Assembly (NCBI GenBank): GCA_017649745.1
Contig: JAGCGE010000087.1
Coordinates: 1 to 8,032 of the forward strand
Source of the DNA: Clostridiales bacterium
GTDB taxonomy: Bacteria > Bacillota_A > Clostridia > Saccharofermentanales > Saccharofermentanaceae
DNA: 8,032 nucleotides
Reading direction: 5' to 3'
The position numbers were made by a program, and so were the translations under genes. Below the pieces are notes generated by a model that saw nothing but the letters and a program-made list of their open reading frames with translations, was not told the DNA's origin and ran no database searches. This document shows, one piece after another, positions 345-8,032 of this stretch. Each line of letters begins with the position of its first letter. Positions within the stretch are counted from its first letter, which is position 1.

Positions 345-626
345 CTATTCTTCTACTAGCAACTTAATGTATTTGCCAGTTAGATCAAACTCAAGTATCT
401 CATCGATAGCTTGATTAATGGCATGCCAATAAATAGCTGGCGTAAGTTCATCAGTTGTATTAGCAACTTTGTCTAAATATGCACTTGTGTAATAGCCCAA
501 ATGTATAGAGCCATCACTTTCAATGTGCCAACCATGAGTAATGTCCCAAGCAAACCACTCATCCATATGAGTACGAGGATCATATGGGTTGTCTGTAGTG
601 GTGATCATGTACATTGGCTCATCCAT
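345..626 (-). CDS. small conserved phage protein of unknown function (93 aa)
   Basis: The protein opens MDEPMYMITTTDNPYDP and continues with MDEWFAWD, a GYYTSAYLDKVA segment and an acidic, helical C-terminal part (AINQAIDEILEF). The combination of a TTTDNPYDP-like start, an aromatic DEW-FxxD stretch and a GYxTxxYLxxI segment is familiar from small hypothetical proteins of phages of Gram-positive bacteria; this is from memory of the family, and no function is known to me. There is no signal peptide or membrane segment. The start is fixed by GGAGGG at 635-640, 8 bases upstream. A second Met four codons further in has no ribosome-binding site at a suitable distance. The reading frame stays open upstream to 830, but that part overlaps the preceding gene and gives an unlikely Leu/Arg-rich sequence. 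The SD overlaps the preceding gene's stop (TAGGAGGG), so translation is probably coupled. Confidence 0.85.
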   Translation of the reverse strand: MDEPMYMITTTDNPYDPRTHMDEWFAWDITHGWHIESDGSIHLGYYTSAYLDKVANTTDELTPAIYWHAINQAIDEILEFDLTGKYIKLLVEE

Positions 627-634
627 AAATATGA

Positions 635-640
635 CCCTCC
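635..640 (-). promoter_or_regulatory. ribosome binding site GGAGGG for the 93-aa gene
   Basis: On the minus strand GGAGGG lies 8 bases before ATG (624-626). It shares its first base with the last base of the upstream stop codon TAG (640-642). This decides the start of the 93-residue protein and implies translational coupling. Confidence 0.8.
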
Positions 641-3420
641 TAACTACGTAGCATAGAATTAACAGTAGTTGTGCTAAGACCAAGAGAATCGGCAATTTCT
701 GCTTGAGTCTTTCCAGAAGCACGCATGCTTTTCGCTCTAGATATGACACTAGGATTGATCTTCTTCTCAGTACGAGGTAATGCAAGCTCTTTGACTCGAT
801 CAGAATCTGCTGCTGATAGCAATGCCTCAAGCCTAGTCTTATGAATCGCTCCAGCCTGTATTGCTTCCCATTCTCTATCTGTTATGTCAAAGTCACTCTT
901 TTTAGCACCAGTACGTTCTCTAGCTTCTTTCAATGCTTGATTCTGAATTTTCTTAAGCCTATCTGGATCATCAGATATGTCCGGATTAGCTCTCTTTTTA
1001 GCTCGAACAACTGTTTCGGTTATTAATTGTGCTTGACGCTCCAAAGGCTTATTACGTTGAGCATTCTTATACTTAGCATCGAGTGAAGCGACCTCTTTTG
1101 CGTAAACTTTTCGAGCAGAAGGAGAATATGGCACAGCTTCAGTAGCTAATGCCTCTTTACGAGCACTATTAGCAAGACTCTTTAGTCTATTAGCATGATC
1201 AGCATAGATGCCTTCCATGATAGTACCAGATGAAAGACTATGAGCATCCTTAGCATCGGCCATGTTAGTAGTCTTACTTTGAGCTTTCTTAATATGACCC
1301 GTGTTTTCCCATAGCCCAGTTTCTTTATTCTTCTTACGCTCTTCATACTCACGGTCAGTATAAATATAACGCCGTTCACCGGTACGCTTATCAGGAGCAA
1401 TCTCCTTACGCTCACCTACACGCTTCTCACCTTTGGCTCTGGAGATTAGTGTTGCTGCACCAGCATTTGGACCACCTTGATACTTACGCTTTAAATCAGA
1501 TATACCATTTTCTCTAGCAGAACGACGCCAATCCAAATTATGCTTCTCAGCATCAATTACAACCATCGAATGTTTAACTGCACGAGTAAGTTCAGAATCA
1601 GTAGCACCCTTAAGAGTCATGTCAGTAATAAGATTGGAGACTTTACCCATCTCCATTTGCTTATTAAAGCCATTTTTCTTCGAAGTTTCAGGCATTCCAG
1701 GATATGCACGGTATTCGTCTTTAGGTTCAAAGTCTTTCAAACCCTTAAGAGGCTTCTGAGCTTTAAGATTTGTGCCACGAGTAGGAATAACTAATACAGT
1801 GTCACCATCGAAATCAGCTCCTGATAATATAGCAGCCGTCTTAGCATTGATTCCTACTGCATCTGGTGAATTCTTACCGACAACTTTAGCAGCAGCTTTC
1901 GAATTATTGTTTACAGTCAACAATGGAATTTCAAAACGACCAGCATGTGGATGTCGAACTAAAGCCACTTGTTCACCATTACGATAGTTTGGTGCAAATA
2001 TCTCAGTCTCTTTTAGACCAGGAACTGGTAATATAACATGACTTGATTGACGAGGTAATGCGGCAGCCTTTAAATGAACTGCTGCTGAATCACATTCATC
2101 AGCAAACTCTTGAAGAAGTTTCTTTTTTACTGTGGGATTAGTTAATGACATAATGTCGTCATATTCTGCTTGCCTAGCATCAGAAGCAATCTTTAGTTGT
2201 TGCTTAGCCATAGCTGGAGTTTGTTTAGATAAGAACTGGCTAGAAAGAGTAGGAGCCCAAGTCTCCCAATCACCTTCCTCGTTAACGATATTGATAGTGG
2301 ACAATTTCTTTTTACCATCTTTATCGGTAAAATATCTTTGTGCCATCGCGAGATCTTTCTCGCCCTTAATTGTGGCTCCAAAAGGATTATCCCAATCAAT
2401 TTCTCCAGTTTCTTTATTCTTTTTCAACTCTTTAAGAATGCTATTGTCTTTTGATCCAAAGATTGGAACATCTTTAGTTTTATTGGTGTTAAATATAACA
2501 TCCACACCATCAGGCATGTCATCTGAATAGACAGCCATTCCTTTCAAATAGTGAGAATCACCAACATTGATACGAACTTGAGCGTAATTCGCAGAACCTA
2601 AAGATATGTCCTCAACACCACGACGAAGCTCAATGACACCATCTTTCTCAATACCTCGTCCGCCATCAGGTCCAATGTCATCCTTATAGCGTATCATCAT
2701 TCGTTTGGGATCAAGAGCAACAGGTCTTTCAAGTCCAAGTTTAGAACGTCCAGTCGGACTACTATCATCATAAGGAGCATTAACAATACGAATATCGCCC
2801 TTATTATTCATCACCTCGGCCCAAGTAGTCCCAGGAGCAGCAAGAACTTGTACAGTTGTATCTTTTCCAGTACCAGCTTGAGTTACTTTAATGTTATGAA
2901 CTTCATAGCCTTCTGATTTAAGTTTTGAAACAGCATTATCCCATACGTATCGTGTTGTACCTATATACTGTTCGCTACCAGCTCCAACATCAATATAACC
3001 CCCTTTTTCATCTAAATCATTCTTAAGCTGTTCTGCCAAATCAGCAGTTCTATTAGCTCTGATTTGAATATCTTCCTTAAGAAGATTACGAACTTGAGAC
3101 TCATTGATTCCCATTCTTCTAGCAGCAGCTGACTGAGAATATCCTTTTTCGATTAAACGCTTAGCTTCAGCAACATCTTCAGCTCGATTCTCAGCTCGTG
3201 CTCGTGAAAGCGCGGCAAGCATGTCATTCTTACTCATACCCATACCGCGAGCGATTTCGGCATCGGTCATTCCTTGATGTCTCAAGTCTAAAATATATGC
3301 CCTGAAGTTTGCATTACGCTGATACGGATTATCGCCTGAGCCCCATGGATACCGACCTGAATGCCTAGGGGTACCATAATGCATCAAATATGACGCATAC
3401 TCTTTATCGGTTACATCCAT
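640..3420 (-). CDS. two-barrel RNA-polymerase-like protein with N- and C-terminal HTH motifs (926 aa)
   Basis: Residues 534-544 read GADFDGDTVLV. This matches the metal-binding DFDGD loop of the second double-psi beta-barrel of cellular RNA polymerase beta' and of single-chain relatives such as YonO of SPbeta and QDE-1; Asp536, Asp538 and Asp540 would hold the catalytic magnesium. About 45 residues earlier, RHPHAGRFEI (489-498) parallels the RAPTLHRLxI stretch that precedes NADFDGD in beta'. A candidate first barrel lies around 280-320 (YLKGMAVYSDD...NTNKTK), with Lys293, Lys314 and Lys316 as possible partners of the conserved beta-subunit lysines; this part is weaker inference. Residues 585-628 (KQMEMGKVSNLITDMTLKG and following) may be the bridge-helix/trigger region. 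HTH-like segments occur at about 50-72, 83-116 and 893-925. The SD AGGAGGAG (3426-3433) lies 5 bases before ATG, and the start overlaps the previous gene by 10 bases. The likely role is phage-encoded transcription, or primer RNA synthesis. A purely structural or regulatory role cannot be excluded. Confidence 0.75.
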   Translation of the reverse strand: MDVTDKEYASYLMHYGTPRHSGRYPWGSGDNPYQRNANFRAYILDLRHQGMTDAEIARGMGMSKNDMLAALSRARAENRAEDVAEAKRLIEKGYSQSAAARRMGINESQVRNLLKEDIQIRANRTADLAEQLKNDLDEKGGYIDVGAGSEQYIGTTRYVWDNAVSKLKSEGYEVHNIKVTQAGTGKDTTVQVLAAPGTTWAEVMNNKGDIRIVNAPYDDSSPTGRSKLGLERPVALDPKRMMIRYKDDIGPDGGRGIEKDGVIELRRGVEDISLGSANYAQVRINVGDSHYLKGMAVYSDDMPDGVDVIFNTNKTKDVPIFGSKDNSILKELKKNKETGEIDWDNPFGATIKGEKDLAMAQRYFTDKDGKKKLSTINIVNEEGDWETWAPTLSSQFLSKQTPAMAKQQLKIASDARQAEYDDIMSLTNPTVKKKLLQEFADECDSAAVHLKAAALPRQSSHVILPVPGLKETEIFAPNYRNGEQVALVRHPHAGRFEIPLLTVNNNSKAAAKVVGKNSPDAVGINAKTAAILSGADFDGDTVLVIPTRGTNLKAQKPLKGLKDFEPKDEYRAYPGMPETSKKNGFNKQMEMGKVSNLITDMTLKGATDSELTRAVKHSMVVIDAEKHNLDWRRSARENGISDLKRKYQGGPNAGAATLISRAKGEKRVGERKEIAPDKRTGERRYIYTDREYEERKKNKETGLWENTGHIKKAQSKTTNMADAKDAHSLSSGTIMEGIYADHANRLKSLANSARKEALATEAVPYSPSARKVYAKEVASLDAKYKNAQRNKPLERQAQLITETVVRAKKRANPDISDDPDRLKKIQNQALKEARERTGAKKSDFDITDREWEAIQAGAIHKTRLEALLSAADSDRVKELALPRTEKKINPSVISRAKSMRASGKTQAEIADSLGLSTTTVNSMLRS

Positions 3421-3986
3421 GCGTTCTCCTCCTCTTTCTTAAGCTCATTAAGTATGAGATCGAAATCTCTAATCCGCTGCATTATCTTCAGAATCTCAAC
3501 TGTTTCTGGAATATCGCTTTCGATGTCATCCATTTGATAGATCCGTAATTCAATGTCTATTTGATGAGGATCGACAACATATTCCAAACAAAACAGTGCC
3601 GCATAAATATACAACTGTTTCATGCTTGCGGGAGTGGTACCAGTTTTAAGATCATGTATTCGTAGTTTTTTAGTTCGCTCTTGATAGCCAATAGCATCAG
3701 CAGTCCCAAAACAATTGTCGGAATAATATAACACTTGTTCCGATGTCATTCGATACCCAATAGCATCATTAACGAACATGTTTAATGTCTTTTTGTTCTT
3801 AGGCATAGCTTGACCTAATCTAATGGCCATGCTTGCAAATTCGTGCAATTGCGTTCCTCTAAAGCGAGCTTGAGCATTAAAATATGACTCTTTCAACTTC
3901 TCATTATCATAGTTAAGCCATGAATATTTACTCGCCCCTAAGAACGCATGCTTACCTTCTAGATTGTAATGCTTCTTGAAGTTCAT
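3411..3986 (-). CDS. Cas4/RecB-like PD-(D/E)XK exonuclease (191 aa)
   Basis: The motifs of RecB/Cas4-type nucleases appear in order: GTQLHEFA with His48, FGTADAIG with Asp97, IHDLKTG with Asp112 and Lys114 (the D-x-K pair), and KQLYIYAAL with Gln124 and Tyr128 (the QxxxY motif). Asp97, Asp112 and Lys114 would bind metal and cleave DNA. No cysteine cluster of the iron-sulphur type found in Cas4 is visible; the few cysteines are scattered, so this is a minimal nuclease core. Phage relatives usually act in recombination or end processing together with an ssDNA-binding protein, which is encoded three genes upstream. The start is supported by AAGGAAG (3993-3999), 6 bases before ATG. The first 35 bases overlap the previous gene. 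The C-terminal EEENAWM codons also form the SD of the next gene. No CRISPR array or other cas gene is present, so a CRISPR adaptation role is not implied. Confidence 0.8.
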   Translation of the reverse strand: MNFKKHYNLEGKHAFLGASKYSWLNYDNEKLKESYFNAQARFRGTQLHEFASMAIRLGQAMPKNKKTLNMFVNDAIGYRMTSEQVLYYSDNCFGTADAIGYQERTKKLRIHDLKTGTTPASMKQLYIYAALFCLEYVVDPHQIDIELRIYQMDDIESDIPETVEILKIMQRIRDFDLILNELKKEEENAWM

Positions 3987-4386: not shown

Positions 4387-5589
4387 AAAGGCCAACTCAT
4401 TAAAACTCTTTTTGTTCTTTAGCGCTGATAATATAGCATTATCGATAGACGATGGAGAAACAAATCTGTAATAGTACAAGTCAGTGTATGGAGTATTGAC
4501 TCGATCAATACGTCCACTTGCTTGTTCCATAATCTTATACGAATAGTTTAACGAATAGAATATAACAGTATCTGTTTCTATGCAATTCCATCCTTCTGCA
4601 CCAGCAGTGTATTGTACTAAGTAAATCCACTTATCTGTTTTTGGAATTAGTTCATGTTTGTGTCCATTCCATTCGGCAATAGAATAATCAATCGAAGTAA
4701 AATATCTTTTTATTGTATGCAATTGTTCAAGCTCAACATCAAGATTGTAAAACACTATTACTTTATCATGAATTTTTAGAAGATGAGCAAGTGCATGTAG
4801 CCGACTGTCGTCACTATTAACAATCCTTCTAAGAATATAGCATAACTGCCCAGCATCTTGAATAGGTTCATTCGTGTATGGATTCCATCTACTTTTGTAA
4901 GCAAGATCATAAATATCTTTTTGGTATCCGACTGGAACATTAGTAAAATGGCGAGTAGTATTACGCTTATCTGACATTTGAACTAGTATCTGTTTCCTAT
5001 ACTGTTCAAGTTTAGTCGTTCCAATGTATCGAACAATTTTAGGGTATTTAGCAAACCTATCAAATATAGCATGTTCTCTAATGAATGCGGTTCGATTTCT
5101 GTAGAAACCATTAGCAACAAATATGGGAATGTAATCAGACCATGTGTCACCAGGAGTCGCACTTAACAGAATCCAATCATTAGCTTTAGCAATTTTTAAA
5201 AATGCTTTTACCCATGCACCAGAACCAACAACCCTTTGTTCGTCAAATATGAAAAACGCACCTTTAACATCAGAATATTTACTAATGTTGTTCCACGAAT
5301 CCACTTTTACAAATATCTTTCCAACACTAAAACGAGGATCAGTGGCCAATCCAAACTTTCTAAACTCATTATCCCATTCTAAAGTATCTCTTTTTCGAGC
5401 AGTAGTGATAATGTATAGATCTCTTGGATGCCTAGGTGTGACTAAAGTACGGTAATTACCATCGCATACTTTATTAAAAAAATATGCCAGTGCAGTAATA
5501 GACTTACCAGAACCGACCCCACCAACTAAGATGGAGCCGGTCCTAAGTTTATCTAATACTTCTTTTTGTTCAGGATATAACTCAACCAT
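4375..5589 (-). CDS. SF2 DNA helicase/ATPase (404 aa)
   Basis: An ATP-dependent DNA translocase of superfamily 2, probably the replicative or recombination helicase of the phage. Visible motifs are a Q-motif-like YPEQ (Gln8), Walker A GGVGSGKS (23-30), motif II DEQR (116-119), motif III SATPG (143-147), a VIVFYN strand opening the second RecA domain (277-282), motif V QYTAGAEGWN (326-335), and motif VI QASGRIDR with Gln356, Gly359, Arg360 and Arg363 as arginine fingers. Both RecA-like domains are complete with little added, so this is a minimal helicase, similar to the DEAD/SNF2-like ATPases in phage replication modules. The start ATG overlaps the stop of the ssDNA-binding protein gene as TAATG, and no clear SD precedes it. 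Translation probably depends on re-initiation, which would tie its amount to that of the upstream protein. Confidence 0.9.
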   Translation of the reverse strand: MVELYPEQKEVLDKLRTGSILVGGVGSGKSITALAYFFNKVCDGNYRTLVTPRHPRDLYIITTARKRDTLEWDNEFRKFGLATDPRFSVGKIFVKVDSWNNISKYSDVKGAFFIFDEQRVVGSGAWVKAFLKIAKANDWILLSATPGDTWSDYIPIFVANGFYRNRTAFIREHAIFDRFAKYPKIVRYIGTTKLEQYRKQILVQMSDKRNTTRHFTNVPVGYQKDIYDLAYKSRWNPYTNEPIQDAGQLCYILRRIVNSDDSRLHALAHLLKIHDKVIVFYNLDVELEQLHTIKRYFTSIDYSIAEWNGHKHELIPKTDKWIYLVQYTAGAEGWNCIETDTVIFYSLNYSYKIMEQASGRIDRVNTPYTDLYYYRFVSPSSIDNAILSALKNKKSFNELAFVRT

Positions 5590-6083
5590 TAATAGTCAAC
5601 AATAACACCGTTGTCATCTACGCTAGGAATGTCATAATACTTATTAATGAATGGATCCTCGACAACCGTAGCATAGATTGACTGCAAATATGCATTCACA
5701 CCAGTATCGCCATTAGGCCGACGCCAACGATTAGGACGAATTACAACATCAACATTCTCATACTCATAATCATCAAGCAAACCAATAGTTTGCTCAGTAA
5801 GATTACGCTTAACATGAGAATTGATAAGCATAGCAAGCGGAGCACGATACTTGTATCCAATGTTAACCTTAATATAACTAACCGGATCATAACCCTCACG
5901 AGGCTTAGTAGTCTTAACATTCATGCCATACTTGCGAGCCTGCTCAAGAGCCTCGCCATCCAATATGACATTAAAGTACCTCTCACCCTCATTATTATAA
6001 GGACCAGCAGCACCCTTAAAATTAGTATAGAAAATGAACTGAGCATTGGGGATGTTAATAGCGGGATACTTGTCGTTTGCCAT
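5589..6083 (-). CDS. phage single-stranded-DNA-binding protein (164 aa)
   Basis: The sequence has the pattern of an ssDNA-binding protein family often found next to DNA polymerase in phages of Gram-positive bacteria: an early NAQFIFYTNFKG strand (13-24), a YNNEGERYFNVIL strand (29-41), NVKTTKPREGYDP (55-67), YIKVNIGYKYRAPLAMLI (70-87), and a basic-aromatic RPNRW followed by GVNAYLQSIYATV (116-140). Alternating strands fit an OB-fold, and the end is acidic (DIPSVDDNGVIVDY), like the partner-binding tails of ssDNA-binding proteins. The family call comes from remembered family patterns, not a search. It would coat single-stranded DNA during replication and recombination and recruit the polymerase or helicase. 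The SD AAAGGAG (6091-6097) lies 7 bases before ATG. The gap to the polymerase stop is only 17 bases, and the stop overlaps the helicase start. Confidence 0.78.
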   Translation of the reverse strand: MANDKYPAINIPNAQFIFYTNFKGAAGPYNNEGERYFNVILDGEALEQARKYGMNVKTTKPREGYDPVSYIKVNIGYKYRAPLAMLINSHVKRNLTEQTIGLLDDYEYENVDVVIRPNRWRRPNGDTGVNAYLQSIYATVVEDPFINKYYDIPSVDDNGVIVDY

Positions 6084-6100: not shown

Positions 6101-8029
6101 CTAAATCTTCAACAATATGTCAGAAATATCAAGACCTAGATCACACAATTTATGATCACTATGGAAATGAGGACAATCAATACAATGGTCCATATAAAAA
6201 TCGCCACATGGCATCATGAATGGTAGATCTTTATTGTCGGCAACAAACCAATAGAAGTCGCCAAATTTAGAAATAGCGTCAACAGCATCGTCAACCAATG
6301 AATCAAAATATGACCTGTCAACAAACTTTTCTAGTTCAGTTCCTCGAACCTCTTCTGCTTCTAAGAATCGATAACCCTTACATCCGGAAGCATAAGAATA
6401 TCTTCCGTCCGATTCGATACGCATCAGAAGACCGCCACCATGTCCTGGTTGAATAGGACAGAATGAACCAGCACGACCAACAAACATATAATTATGATCG
6501 CCGTCAACAAGTTGTTCATTCTTGTCCAGATAGAATGCAGACTGTGTAGTCATTGTAACGCACATGTCTTTTAGTTCAATATCTTCATGTGTAAATATCT
6601 TTTTGAACACATAAGGCTCTTGGAACTGTTTTCCAGTTGCAGTCCATTGTCCGGGAGCTTGCGGTGAGGTAACCGTTTGCTTGCCGACAAACACTGCATT
6701 GTTAACCAAACAAATCTTTTCCCATTCGGCTTCTACTTCGAAAATATAACCGAACTTCTTACCAAACTCATAAACAAACTCTTCTATCTCTGGCGTTGGA
6801 TTAGCAATCTTTATAGAGTCCGTCTTAATATGCACCACAGTAAAACCACGGCTTTCGACTTCATCCTGAAGAGTTCGCATAAACAAAGCTCCTCGAAGAG
6901 CAACAATGTTGTTTTTGTTCCTACGATCTCTAAATGGATTGTCAAACGATGCTGATGTTAATCCATACACAGAATTGATTGCAGTCTTCAATGCGTTAGA
7001 CAAGTCTTTGGCCTCATTCTTGTCTTTCAAATATGACTTAAGTTTGCCATCAAACAGCTTACCAACAGCATCATAGTCGCCATGCTTTATGTATAGACGA
7101 ATGTTTACAAGATCTGCAAAACGATCAGTATACTCACCCAAATATCTTTCTTGGATAATCGAAGTAGGATGCATGGATGCGACATCGAATGTCTTACAAT
7201 GCTCATACATTCCAGGATTAGCATACACCCATCCACCACGACCAACATCGTCGCCTCGATACATGTTCTTCCCGTTCTTATAAATATAGCCCGGGAACTC
7301 TTCAGCAAGATCATACCAATGAAGTTGTGGTTTCTTGTTTCGCCCAAATATAATTCTAGTAGTAAGACTGTTTGTACTATCATTAACAGTCATGTCAGCA
7401 ATGTCTGCTAGAATCTCACGAGCTCTAAAGTCACCATGAAGATGATGAAATACAGCTTCTGTAGATATAACATCATTGTCACAGTATTCAGCTACCTTCA
7501 CCCAATCTTTTTCATCGACTGGTTGATCCCATGGAAGACCAAGTTCTTGGTGGTGCAATCCGAGTTCTATCTCCCACTTCTTAAGACTTTTCTTATGCCC
7601 AGCAGAAGCAAAGTCATACACATCAGTATATGACACATTAAATGCTTCGCCTAATAGATGATTGCCTTTGTTGCTTACAATATTCTGACTAAGACGATAG
7701 ATCTCTTCATTATTGTAACCGATATATCTAGCATACAAAATATGATTATCATACCTACGATTATTAAAACCAACTAGTTTGTAGTTAAATAATTCACCAA
7801 TTTCTTCTGGAGAAGGATTAATCATTCGAACACAACTAGCATCACCATCGAACTTCCAATTCACCAGTAGAAGATTTGGAAATACCTCACAGTCAAAGAA
7901 TACAAGACGATCGTCAAAATATCGCCCATCAGTTCTATTGTCACTAGGATCTTCCGACTTGAATGGCATTTCACTTGCAAGTTTCATGCAGTATTCTGAT
8001 TGATTTGTAGAATTCATTGCAAATATCAT
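6101..8029 (-). CDS. family B-type phage DNA polymerase with 3'-5' exonuclease (642 aa, 5' end uncertain)
   Basis: The N-terminal half carries the proofreading exonuclease: Exo I FFDCEVF with Asp46 and Glu48, Exo II FNNRRYD with Asn90 and Asp94, Exo III YCDND with Tyr182 and Asp186. The polymerase follows: motif A DVASMHPTSI (Asp282), motif B KTAINSVYG (Lys348, Asn352, Tyr355, Gly356), motif C HIKTDSIKI (Asp404). The first Asp of the usual DTD in motif C is replaced by Lys402; the catalytic Asp404 remains. Only about 66 residues separate motifs A and B, leaving no room for the TPR1 insertion of protein-primed polymerases such as phi29, so ordinary priming is more likely. The C-terminus has a Cys/His cluster (Cys608, His615, Cys616, Cys619, His621, His623, His626, Cys629) that may bind zinc. 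The ATG is 3 bases from the window edge and the codon before it is open, so the true start may lie further upstream. Met5 has no SD. Confidence 0.92.
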   Translation of the reverse strand: MIFAMNSTNQSEYCMKLASEMPFKSEDPSDNRTDGRYFDDRLVFFDCEVFPNLLLVNWKFDGDASCVRMINPSPEEIGELFNYKLVGFNNRRYDNHILYARYIGYNNEEIYRLSQNIVSNKGNHLLGEAFNVSYTDVYDFASAGHKKSLKKWEIELGLHHQELGLPWDQPVDEKDWVKVAEYCDNDVISTEAVFHHLHGDFRAREILADIADMTVNDSTNSLTTRIIFGRNKKPQLHWYDLAEEFPGYIYKNGKNMYRGDDVGRGGWVYANPGMYEHCKTFDVASMHPTSIIQERYLGEYTDRFADLVNIRLYIKHGDYDAVGKLFDGKLKSYLKDKNEAKDLSNALKTAINSVYGLTSASFDNPFRDRRNKNNIVALRGALFMRTLQDEVESRGFTVVHIKTDSIKIANPTPEIEEFVYEFGKKFGYIFEVEAEWEKICLVNNAVFVGKQTVTSPQAPGQWTATGKQFQEPYVFKKIFTHEDIELKDMCVTMTTQSAFYLDKNEQLVDGDHNYMFVGRAGSFCPIQPGHGGGLLMRIESDGRYSYASGCKGYRFLEAEEVRGTELEKFVDRSYFDSLVDDAVDAISKFGDFYWFVADNKDLPFMMPCGDFYMDHCIDCPHFHSDHKLCDLGLDISDILLKI

Positions 8030-8032
8030 TAC

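What the first reader, a model, noticed from the sequence alone, without database searches (positions are those of the whole stretch)
640..3420. Single-chain, DFDGD-bearing RNA polymerase-like protein framed by helix-turn-helix motifs
Seen: GADFDGDTVLV at residues 534-544, preceded by RHPHAGRFEI, an arrangement like RAPTLHRL...NADFDGD in beta'. Family knowledge: this Asp triad marks the two-barrel RNA polymerase superfamily, including single-chain members such as YonO and QDE-1. Unusual here: two HTH-like segments at the N-terminus (about 50-72 and 83-116) and one at the extreme C-terminus (893-925), and a location inside a replication operon. Inference: a self-contained phage transcriptase or primase whose HTH segments recognise promoters without sigma factor. 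Such proteins are easily annotated only as HTH DNA-binding proteins, so the enzyme could be overlooked.
Basis: partly seen in the sequence, partly recalled or inferred. Interest (0 to 1): 0.78.

Follow-up and report, generated by a model that had tools for sequence, protein, structure and literature searches.

The report
Phage RNA polymerase with head-protein tag
A phage encodes a one-piece RNA polymerase of the same fold family as cellular RNA polymerases, and its start carries a short peptide of the kind also found on proteins encoded beside phage packaging genes, which suggests that the enzyme may travel inside the virus particle.

Summary

It is not undescribed: PHROG 4291 ('RNA-dependent RNA polymerase') covers it end to end, and 249 of 50,697 phage records carry a near-full-length homologue; most of those listed are labelled 'HTH DNA-binding protein'.

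Near-identical peptides start two proteins flanking the terminase gene in a human-gut phage. A related peptide, Pfam DUF7211, occurs in the polymerase-bearing phages: in nine annotated genomes 32 of 32 copies lie from 1.4 kb before the terminase gene to the portal gene. A close relative of the window's phage has a second cluster elsewhere. Depositors of Lactococcus phage 1706 labelled its homologue 'structural protein'.

Best explanation: a virion RNA polymerase loaded through a shared tag and ejected with the DNA. The enzyme class is well supported; loading is inferred. Promoter recognition by the HTHs, and a primase role, are unsupported.

The parts
640..3420 (-). Single-chain two-barrel RNA polymerase, 926 aa (PHROG 4291)
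3316..3387 (-). N-terminal tag, residues 12-35 (LMHYGTPRHSGRYPWGSGDNPYQR)
   Evidence: Residues 12-29 rank 13 of 909 windows for conservation; 11-35 have pLDDT under 50; near-identical peptide on proteins flanking the terminase gene of a gut phage and on 120 of 120 listed relatives of one of them
3205..3315 (-). HTH-like segment 1, residues 36-72
   Evidence: Helices 36-48, 53-59, 64-91; Pfam HTH_68 at 43-63, below cut-off
3073..3186 (-). HTH segment 2, residues 79-116
   Evidence: Pfam HTH_23, 42.9 bits; helices
2281..2724 (-). Beta-like barrel region, about residues 233-380, with invariant K293
   Evidence: K293 75 of 75; the structural match to QDE-1 starts at 233; assignment to the beta-type barrel is inferred
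1783..2073 (-). Beta-prime-like barrel region, about residues 450-546
1801..1815 (-). DFDGD metal-binding motif, residues 536-540
   Evidence: aligns with rpoC NADFDGD over 25 columns at E 0.03
1534..1662 (-). Bridge-helix/trigger-loop-like helices, residues 587-629, invariant M591 G592 D600 D623 K626 H627
   Evidence: the naming is inferred from position only
643..753 (-). C-terminal HTH, residues 890-926, sigma region 4-like
   Evidence: Pfam Sigma70_r4_2, 39.2 bits; helices
345..626 (-). Small gene directly downstream, 93 aa, phrog_4303, unknown function
   Evidence: phrog_4303; ORF of 70-130 aa at this position in 71 of 78 loci, by eye all but one of one family; model pLDDT 88, no clear fold match
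3411..3986 (-). Cas4/PD-(D/E)XK-type exonuclease
   Evidence: phrog_3953, E 9.7e-75; gene at this place named Cas4 family exonuclease in phage Camille
3952..4329 (-). VRR-type nuclease (true start probably downstream of the listed ATG)
   Evidence: phrog_93, E 2e-18; gene at this place named VRR-Nuc in phage Camille
4375..5589 (-). SF2 helicase
   Evidence: phrog_62, E 1e-57; Pfam Helicase_C
5589..6083 (-). Phage ssDNA-binding/annealing protein
   Evidence: PF24083, E 1.8e-36; phrog_4787
6101..8032 (-). DNA polymerase, cut by the window edge; about 1317 aa in relatives, with a primase/helicase-like N-terminal half
   Evidence: phrog_4210 matched from 678 to 1291 of 1304; full-length ORF in L002
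1..283 (.). 85-bp tandem repeat, 3.3 copies, with the palindrome CCTCTATAGAGG four times

Best explanation
The protein is a single-chain two-barrel RNA polymerase that the phage loads into its own particle. Residues 12-35 are a disordered, near-invariant targeting tag, a variant of the DUF7211 peptide carried by a set of proteins encoded around the terminase and portal genes of related phages. During assembly the tag brings the polymerase into the prohead with these proteins. On infection it is ejected with the DNA and transcribes the first phage genes, perhaps guided by its HTHs. Shown here: family, fold, catalytic residues, HTHs, tag conservation, the sharing of the tag with proteins flanking the terminase gene, and association of DUF7211 with the polymerase. 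From others' labels: presence in virions of phage 1706. Inferred: that the tag loads the head, that the enzyme is ejected, and which genes it reads.
Against: The gene lies in the replication module, not with the head genes. In G001, which carries an 81%-identical polymerase, two tagged ORFs precede the terminase but a second cluster of tagged ORFs lies at 34-41 kb, far from it; G003 and G025 also have tags in separate places. So the tag is not confined to head-gene neighbours, and a non-head role is possible. The DUF7211 model reaches only 15 bits (cut-off 27) on 2 of 7 polymerase N-termini and nothing on the window's own. Direct polymerase-tag/DUF7211 similarity rests on 9 columns. Association is confounded by shared descent of one phage lineage. 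5 of 26 polymerase-bearing records had no DUF7211 match; virus records may be fragments. The 1706 'structural protein' label is the depositors'; the RefSeq record says RNA-dependent RNA polymerase, and I could not read the paper. No promoter was identified. The window holds no head genes, so its own phage's tagged proteins were not seen.
Confidence: 0.5

Rival explanations
1. A non-virion transcriptase, made after infection to read middle or late genes, like YonO or P23-45 gp64. The tag then does something else, such as tethering the enzyme to proheads, the portal or another common partner.
For: The gene is in the replication module. The fold match to P74 gp62 is about as strong as to QDE-1. 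YonO is a proven single-chain phage transcriptase (PMC5467207, passages read). In G001 many tagged ORFs are away from the head genes.
Against: It does not by itself explain why the N-terminus carries a peptide found on proteins flanking the terminase or the 1706 'structural protein' label.
Confidence: 0.32
2. A primer-making enzyme for phage DNA replication.
For: It ends the replication operon. No primase domain was among the Pfam families listed for the first 201 residues of five DNA polymerase fusions.
Against: The DNA polymerase fusion matches parts of several PHROG primase families, and in Camille residues 539-749 match a 'DNA polymerase/primase' family. Terminal HTHs and a head-type tag are not expected of a primase.
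Confidence: 0.06
3. A true RNA-dependent RNA polymerase, as the PHROG and RefSeq names say, making double-stranded RNA.
For: Closest solved folds include QDE-1 and plant RDR2.
Against: QDE-1 itself copies DNA and RNA (PMC2950127, title and abstract in listing), so the fold does not fix the template. DNA-binding-type HTHs and a dsDNA phage context argue for a DNA template.
Confidence: 0.05
4. A catalytically dead polymerase relic that works only as a DNA-binding regulator or structural protein.
For: No activity has been shown for this family in anything I could read.
Against: The triad, K293 and other active-site-region residues are identical in 75 of 75 sequences.
Confidence: 0.04

Closest known systems
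PHROG 4291 'RNA-dependent RNA polymerase' (phages 1706, ReqiPepy6, Mudcat, Camille and others)
   Same: End-to-end match, 1159 bits; the polymerase gene follows a VRR-type and a Cas4-like or RecB-like nuclease gene and precedes a small gene in Camille and HotFries as annotated, and in ReqiPepy6 and ReqiPoco6 by their 1706-based notes; the tag is present in Camille, 1706, ReqiPepy6 and ReqiPoco6
   Different: At most 51% identical to the named isolates listed; unnamed viral contigs reach 93%
Neurospora QDE-1 and plant RDR2
   Different: Cellular RNAi enzymes; only the core, about 230-850, aligns; the tag and terminal HTHs lie outside it
P23-45/P74 phage RNAPs gp64/gp62
   Different: gp64 is absent from virions (PMC10770324, passages read); that gp62 is its counterpart is inferred; chain of about 590 aa, without the flanking regions seen here
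P23-45 gp96 virion RNAP and crAss-like phi14:2 gp66
   Same: Single-chain two-barrel phage RNAPs; gp96 is carried in the particle (PMC10770324, sections read, passages)
   Different: gp96 is fused to the tape measure protein; here the tape measure is a separate gene in named relatives and the proposed delivery is a short N-terminal tag
YonO of SPbeta
   Same: Single-chain phage two-barrel transcriptase (PMC5467207, passages read)
   Different: No sequence comparison was made here; no tag in the passages read
Pfam PF23847 DUF7211 (25-residue family, unknown function)
   Same: Same L-H[YH]G start and WG; same phages; found around terminase genes
   Different: The polymerase tag is a longer variant (HYGTPRHSGRYPWGSG) that does not reach the DUF7211 cut-off
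T4 capsid-targeting sequences (recalled, no call)
   Same: Short peptide shared by several internal head proteins
   Different: Different sequence; cleavage and loading not tested here

Membership tests
Two-barrel (double-psi beta-barrel) RNA polymerases | DxDxD metal-binding triad | tested here: met
   DFDGD 536-540, 75 of 75 rows
Two-barrel (double-psi beta-barrel) RNA polymerases | Both barrels in the fold | tested here: met
Two-barrel (double-psi beta-barrel) RNA polymerases | Two basic residues from the second barrel facing the triad (definition read in PMC7824862, passages) | tested here: inconclusive
   K293 75 of 75 and K314 71 of 75; no coordinates to measure distances; hhalign with rpoB did not align this region
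Two-barrel (double-psi beta-barrel) RNA polymerases | Template-dependent RNA synthesis | not testable with these tools
   needs purified protein
PHROG 4291 | Full-length profile match | tested here: met
   6-925 to 6-906 of 909, 1159 bits
Virion RNA polymerases | Present in mature particles | not testable with these tools
   Only the depositors' label for 1706 orf75, repeated in ReqiPoco6 notes
Virion RNA polymerases | Fusion to the tape measure protein, as in P23-45 | tested here: not met
   Separate tape measure genes in Camille, Mudcat, HotFries
DUF7211 (PF23847) | Profile score over the 27-bit cut-off | tested here: not met
   15.3 and 15.2 bits for 2 of 7 polymerase N-termini, none for the window's
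YonO-like | Sequence or profile relation to YonO | not tested
   no YonO sequence was fetched
Sigma region 4 HTH | Sigma70_r4 profile over cut-off at the C-terminus | tested here: met
   Sigma70_r4_2 39.2 bits (cut-off 25.7), Sigma70_r4 27.3 (cut-off 24.1); HTH profiles cross-match, so function is open

The most novel reading that the evidence does not exclude
DUF7211 and its longer polymerase variant form a general loading code of one large phage lineage. Any protein bearing L-H[YH]G...WG is taken into the prohead and ejected with the DNA: an RNA polymerase, a 2'-5' RNA ligase-like protein and others, including the second cluster of tagged genes seen in a relative of the window's phage. The polymerase is thus an ejected transcriptase delivered by a portable 25-residue peptide. 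Its genome-wide signal may be the strand-polar pentamer ATATT, strongly enriched on the coding strand of many of these phages and scarce on the other.
Probability: 0.3. Interest if true: 0.82.

Novelty: new variant of a known kind. Interest (0 to 1): 0.62.

Why it matters
If true, a polymerase found in about 250 sequenced phage records, many from Arthrobacter, Gordonia and Streptomyces isolates, would be a virion enzyme delivered by a short portable tag rather than by fusion to a tail protein. That would give DUF7211 a function, make a list of ejected phage proteins readable from sequence, and offer laboratory phages in which virion transcription can be tested. It would also correct annotations: most listed records call the enzyme an HTH protein, and one tag-bearing short protein is named RNA dependent RNA polymerase in nr.

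Tried and rejected
Own genome: none is held for this window. DNA-level match of the window to phage records: none. phmmer against PDB sequences: no hit. hhalign of A1 with E. coli rpoB gave no barrel alignment, and with rpoC only 25 columns around ADFDGD (probability 1.6%, E 0.03), so the family assignment rests on PHROG and fold. I had noted by eye a likeness of residues 285-314 to rpoB (rpoB letters recalled); one search did not confirm it.

Tag regex: one search found nothing because of a wrong pattern; one search corrected it. One search counted 31 of 31 tags near the terminase, but on the forward strand and in parts of most records only; one search repeated this over the whole records with the Pfam model and replaces it. 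BitterVaud1's two matches (7024, 9205) are left out of the 32 because its genes carry no functions in the record. The claim 'head module only' was tested on the window's relative G001 and rejected: a second tagged cluster lies at 34-41 kb.

Homology of the L088 and L008 proteins next to terminase beyond the tag: BLASTP found none. L088-type proteins in viral contigs: one short contig only, so I could not see whether their genomes carry the polymerase. In one search five further genomes had weak partial matches to PHROG 4291 (19-26 bits), not counted; one of the 14 control genomes also rang.

ATATT as a promoter: 9 of 80 Camille sites lie 5-60 nt before a gene start against 7.0 expected, and 4 of 25 in HotFries against 1.8, so no clear promoter signal. 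It is not universal: rank 312, 909 and 385 of 1024 in Mudcat, 1706 and P078, and HotFries has it in the structural rather than the replication half. In nine minus-strand ORFs of low-GC loci ATATT was 6 sense to 17 antisense, too few and of uncertain reality; one annotated minus-strand gene of FP_oengus gave 2 sense to 3 antisense.
Full report
WHAT IS THERE. The ORF at 640-3420 (minus strand) encodes 926 aa and is intact. GADFDGDTVLV is at 534-544 and RHPHAGRFEI at 489-498, as reported. Upstream in the same direction lie a Cas4-like exonuclease, a VRR-type nuclease, an SF2 helicase, an ssDNA-binding protein and a DNA polymerase that runs off the window. In relatives the DNA polymerase is about 1317 aa with a primase/helicase-like N-terminal half. 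A 93-aa gene follows at 345-626.

WHAT THE ENZYME IS. The protein matches PHROG 4291, 'RNA-dependent RNA polymerase', over its whole length with 1159 bits. tblastn finds it in 250 of 50,697 phage records, 249 of them over at least 80% of the query: Arthrobacter 95, Gordonia 55, Streptomyces 54, Lactococcus 13 and others, all below 60% identity. Most of the records listed call it an HTH DNA-binding protein; several RefSeq records call it RNA-dependent RNA polymerase. The protein search scored 8000 candidates, its cap, and all 8000 were at E 0.001 or better. The nearest relatives in viral contigs reach 93% identity; a contig in a Bacillota MAG has 80% and one in a Blautia MAG from sheep abomasum 48%.

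THE TAG. Residues 12-29 rank 13th of 909 eighteen-residue windows for conservation, with mean top-residue fraction 0.88 against 0.69 for residues 233-757, yet 11-35 are predicted disordered. An HMM of this segment was run over 5945 ORFs from 99 loci. It found 89 polymerase ORFs and two others far above decoys: L088 at E 4e-14 and 3e-12. L088 is a phage scaffold from human faecal samples. The two ORFs, 197 and 185 aa, lie directly before and after the terminase large-subunit ORF (PHROG E 1.6e-99) and precede the portal ORF (E 5.3e-39). Both hit PHROG 4291 with their N-terminal parts. The database holds 484 proteins related to the first. Of the 120 listed, all carry the tag and 3 have HYGTPRHSGRYPWGSGKDPYQ, almost the polymerase's own string; their genomic contexts were not seen. 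In the reverse direction the L088 protein as query hit 124 phage records; 29 of the 30 listed match only within residues 15-48, and where I could compare, the places are those of the polymerase gene (compared).

DUF7211. The polymerase-bearing phages also carry a shorter relative of this peptide, L-H[YH]G..GMKWG. Of the 40 non-polymerase hits listed for the polymerase-tag HMM, two are the L088 ORFs and 31 fall in such proteins, mostly aligned at L-HYG, each too weak to stand alone (my count). Pfam knows the peptide as DUF7211, function unknown; 10 of 10 pattern-bearing proteins scanned pass its cut-off. The profile-profile score between the two tags is 24.0, against 200 column-permuted decoys with maximum 18.5, over 9 columns. 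The DUF7211 model itself stays under threshold on the polymerases. Searched over nine whole annotated phage records it matches 32 times, 31 over the cut-off, all 32 between 1.4 kb before TerL and the portal gene (in P078 the gene at the portal position carries another name); a tenth polymerase phage, BitterVaud1, has two; three phages without this polymerase have none (compared with the gene tables). ReqiPepy6 alone has eight, several reading DFLAHYGVKGMKWG, next to its polymerase's DDYLAHYGILRRSGRYPWGSG. In some proteins the tag is internal, for example Petito gp13, a 2'-5' RNA ligase-like protein, at 350-372.

AGAINST A HEAD-ONLY TAG. In G001 (the 82-kb contig of L007, polymerase 81% identical) two tagged ORFs precede the terminase, but a second cluster of tagged ORFs lies at 34-41 kb. 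Their functions are unknown. The tag is thus not confined to neighbours of head genes in the window's closer kin.

ASSOCIATION. A DUF7211-tag query hits 241 of 50,697 phage records at 927 places (E limit 10), with genus counts equal to those of the polymerase for Arthrobacter, Gordonia, Streptomyces, Curtobacterium, Microbacterium and Faecalibacterium; Lactococcus is 10 against 13 and Rhodococcus 5 against 4. I compared counts, not accession lists. In 291 genomes of one class, DUF7211 and a strong PHROG 4291 match occur in the same 3 and share a contig in each; one of the 3 was the seed. Of 26 polymerase-bearing records and genomes 21 have DUF7211. All this may reflect one phage lineage, so it shows association, not mechanism.

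VIRION EVIDENCE. In the depositors' record of Lactococcus phage 1706 the polymerase homologue orf75 and the doubly tagged orf7 are both 'structural protein'; ReqiPoco6 repeats this for its homologue. The RefSeq version of 1706 names orf75 RNA-dependent RNA polymerase. I could not read the original paper.

MECHANISM. I think it most likely that the tag brings the polymerase into the head together with DUF7211 proteins and that it enters the cell with the DNA to make the first transcripts. Tag sharing and fold are shown; loading, ejection and gene targets are inferred. The HTHs may bind promoters, but nothing here shows it.

COMPARISON. It would work like a virion RNAP such as P23-45 gp96 (PMC10770324, sections read, passages), but without fusion to the tape measure, which is a separate gene in relatives. 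The core resembles QDE-1 and P74 gp62 about equally. YonO was not compared by sequence.

STRAND-POLAR MOTIF. Against synonymous-codon shuffles ATATT ranks 1st of 1024 pentamers in 9 of 21 polymerase-phage sequences and within the top 8 in 13 of 21, but not in Mudcat, 1706 or P078; it is unremarkable in the controls (ranks 644 and 760; 489, 701 and 637, where phiC31 is run again). In phage Camille it occurs 80 times on the coding strand and 3 on the other. Its role is unknown.

Noticed in passing
Window coding strand; also L081+L089 (Camille), L095, L099, L008, L030, L042, L072, L092: Pentamer ATATT is strongly strand-polar: 56 (from base 301) to 7 in the window, 80 to 3 in Camille, top-ranked over synonymous shuffles in 9 of 21 sequences, mostly inside genes rather than at starts, denser in the replication half of Camille, FP_oengus, L008 and L092 but not HotFries. 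No bias in 1706, P078, Mudcat and controls.
   Followed up: partly
345-626 (-): Small 93-aa gene (phrog_4303) kept directly behind the polymerase: an ORF of 70-130 aa follows in 71 of 78 loci, by eye all but one of one family. Confident alpha/beta model without a clear fold match.
   Followed up: partly
L105 (G001 contig 34-41 kb): Second cluster of DUF7211-tagged ORFs, away from the terminase, in a relative whose polymerase is 81% identical. Functions unknown.
   Followed up: partly
1-283: 85-bp repeat in 3.3 copies with the perfect palindrome CCTCTATAGAGG four times, just beyond the last gene; possible site near the genome end, origin or protein-binding array.
   Followed up: no
6101-8032 (-): The DNA polymerase gene is cut by the window edge; relatives show a fusion of a primase/helicase-like half with the polymerase, about 1320 aa.
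   Followed up: partly
L096:6136-7695 (Gordonia phage Petito gp13): A 2'-5' RNA ligase-like protein carries an internal DUF7211 tag; tagged proteins annotated hydrolase and acetyltransferase also appear. Candidate ejected enzymes.
   Followed up: no
Protein P0138: A short relative of the L088 tagged protein is named RNA dependent RNA polymerase in nr, apparently because of the shared tag.
   Followed up: no
L086:2501-3889 (Lactococcus phage 1706 orf7): A protein labelled structural carries two copies of the tag, one near the start and one internal.
   Followed up: partly
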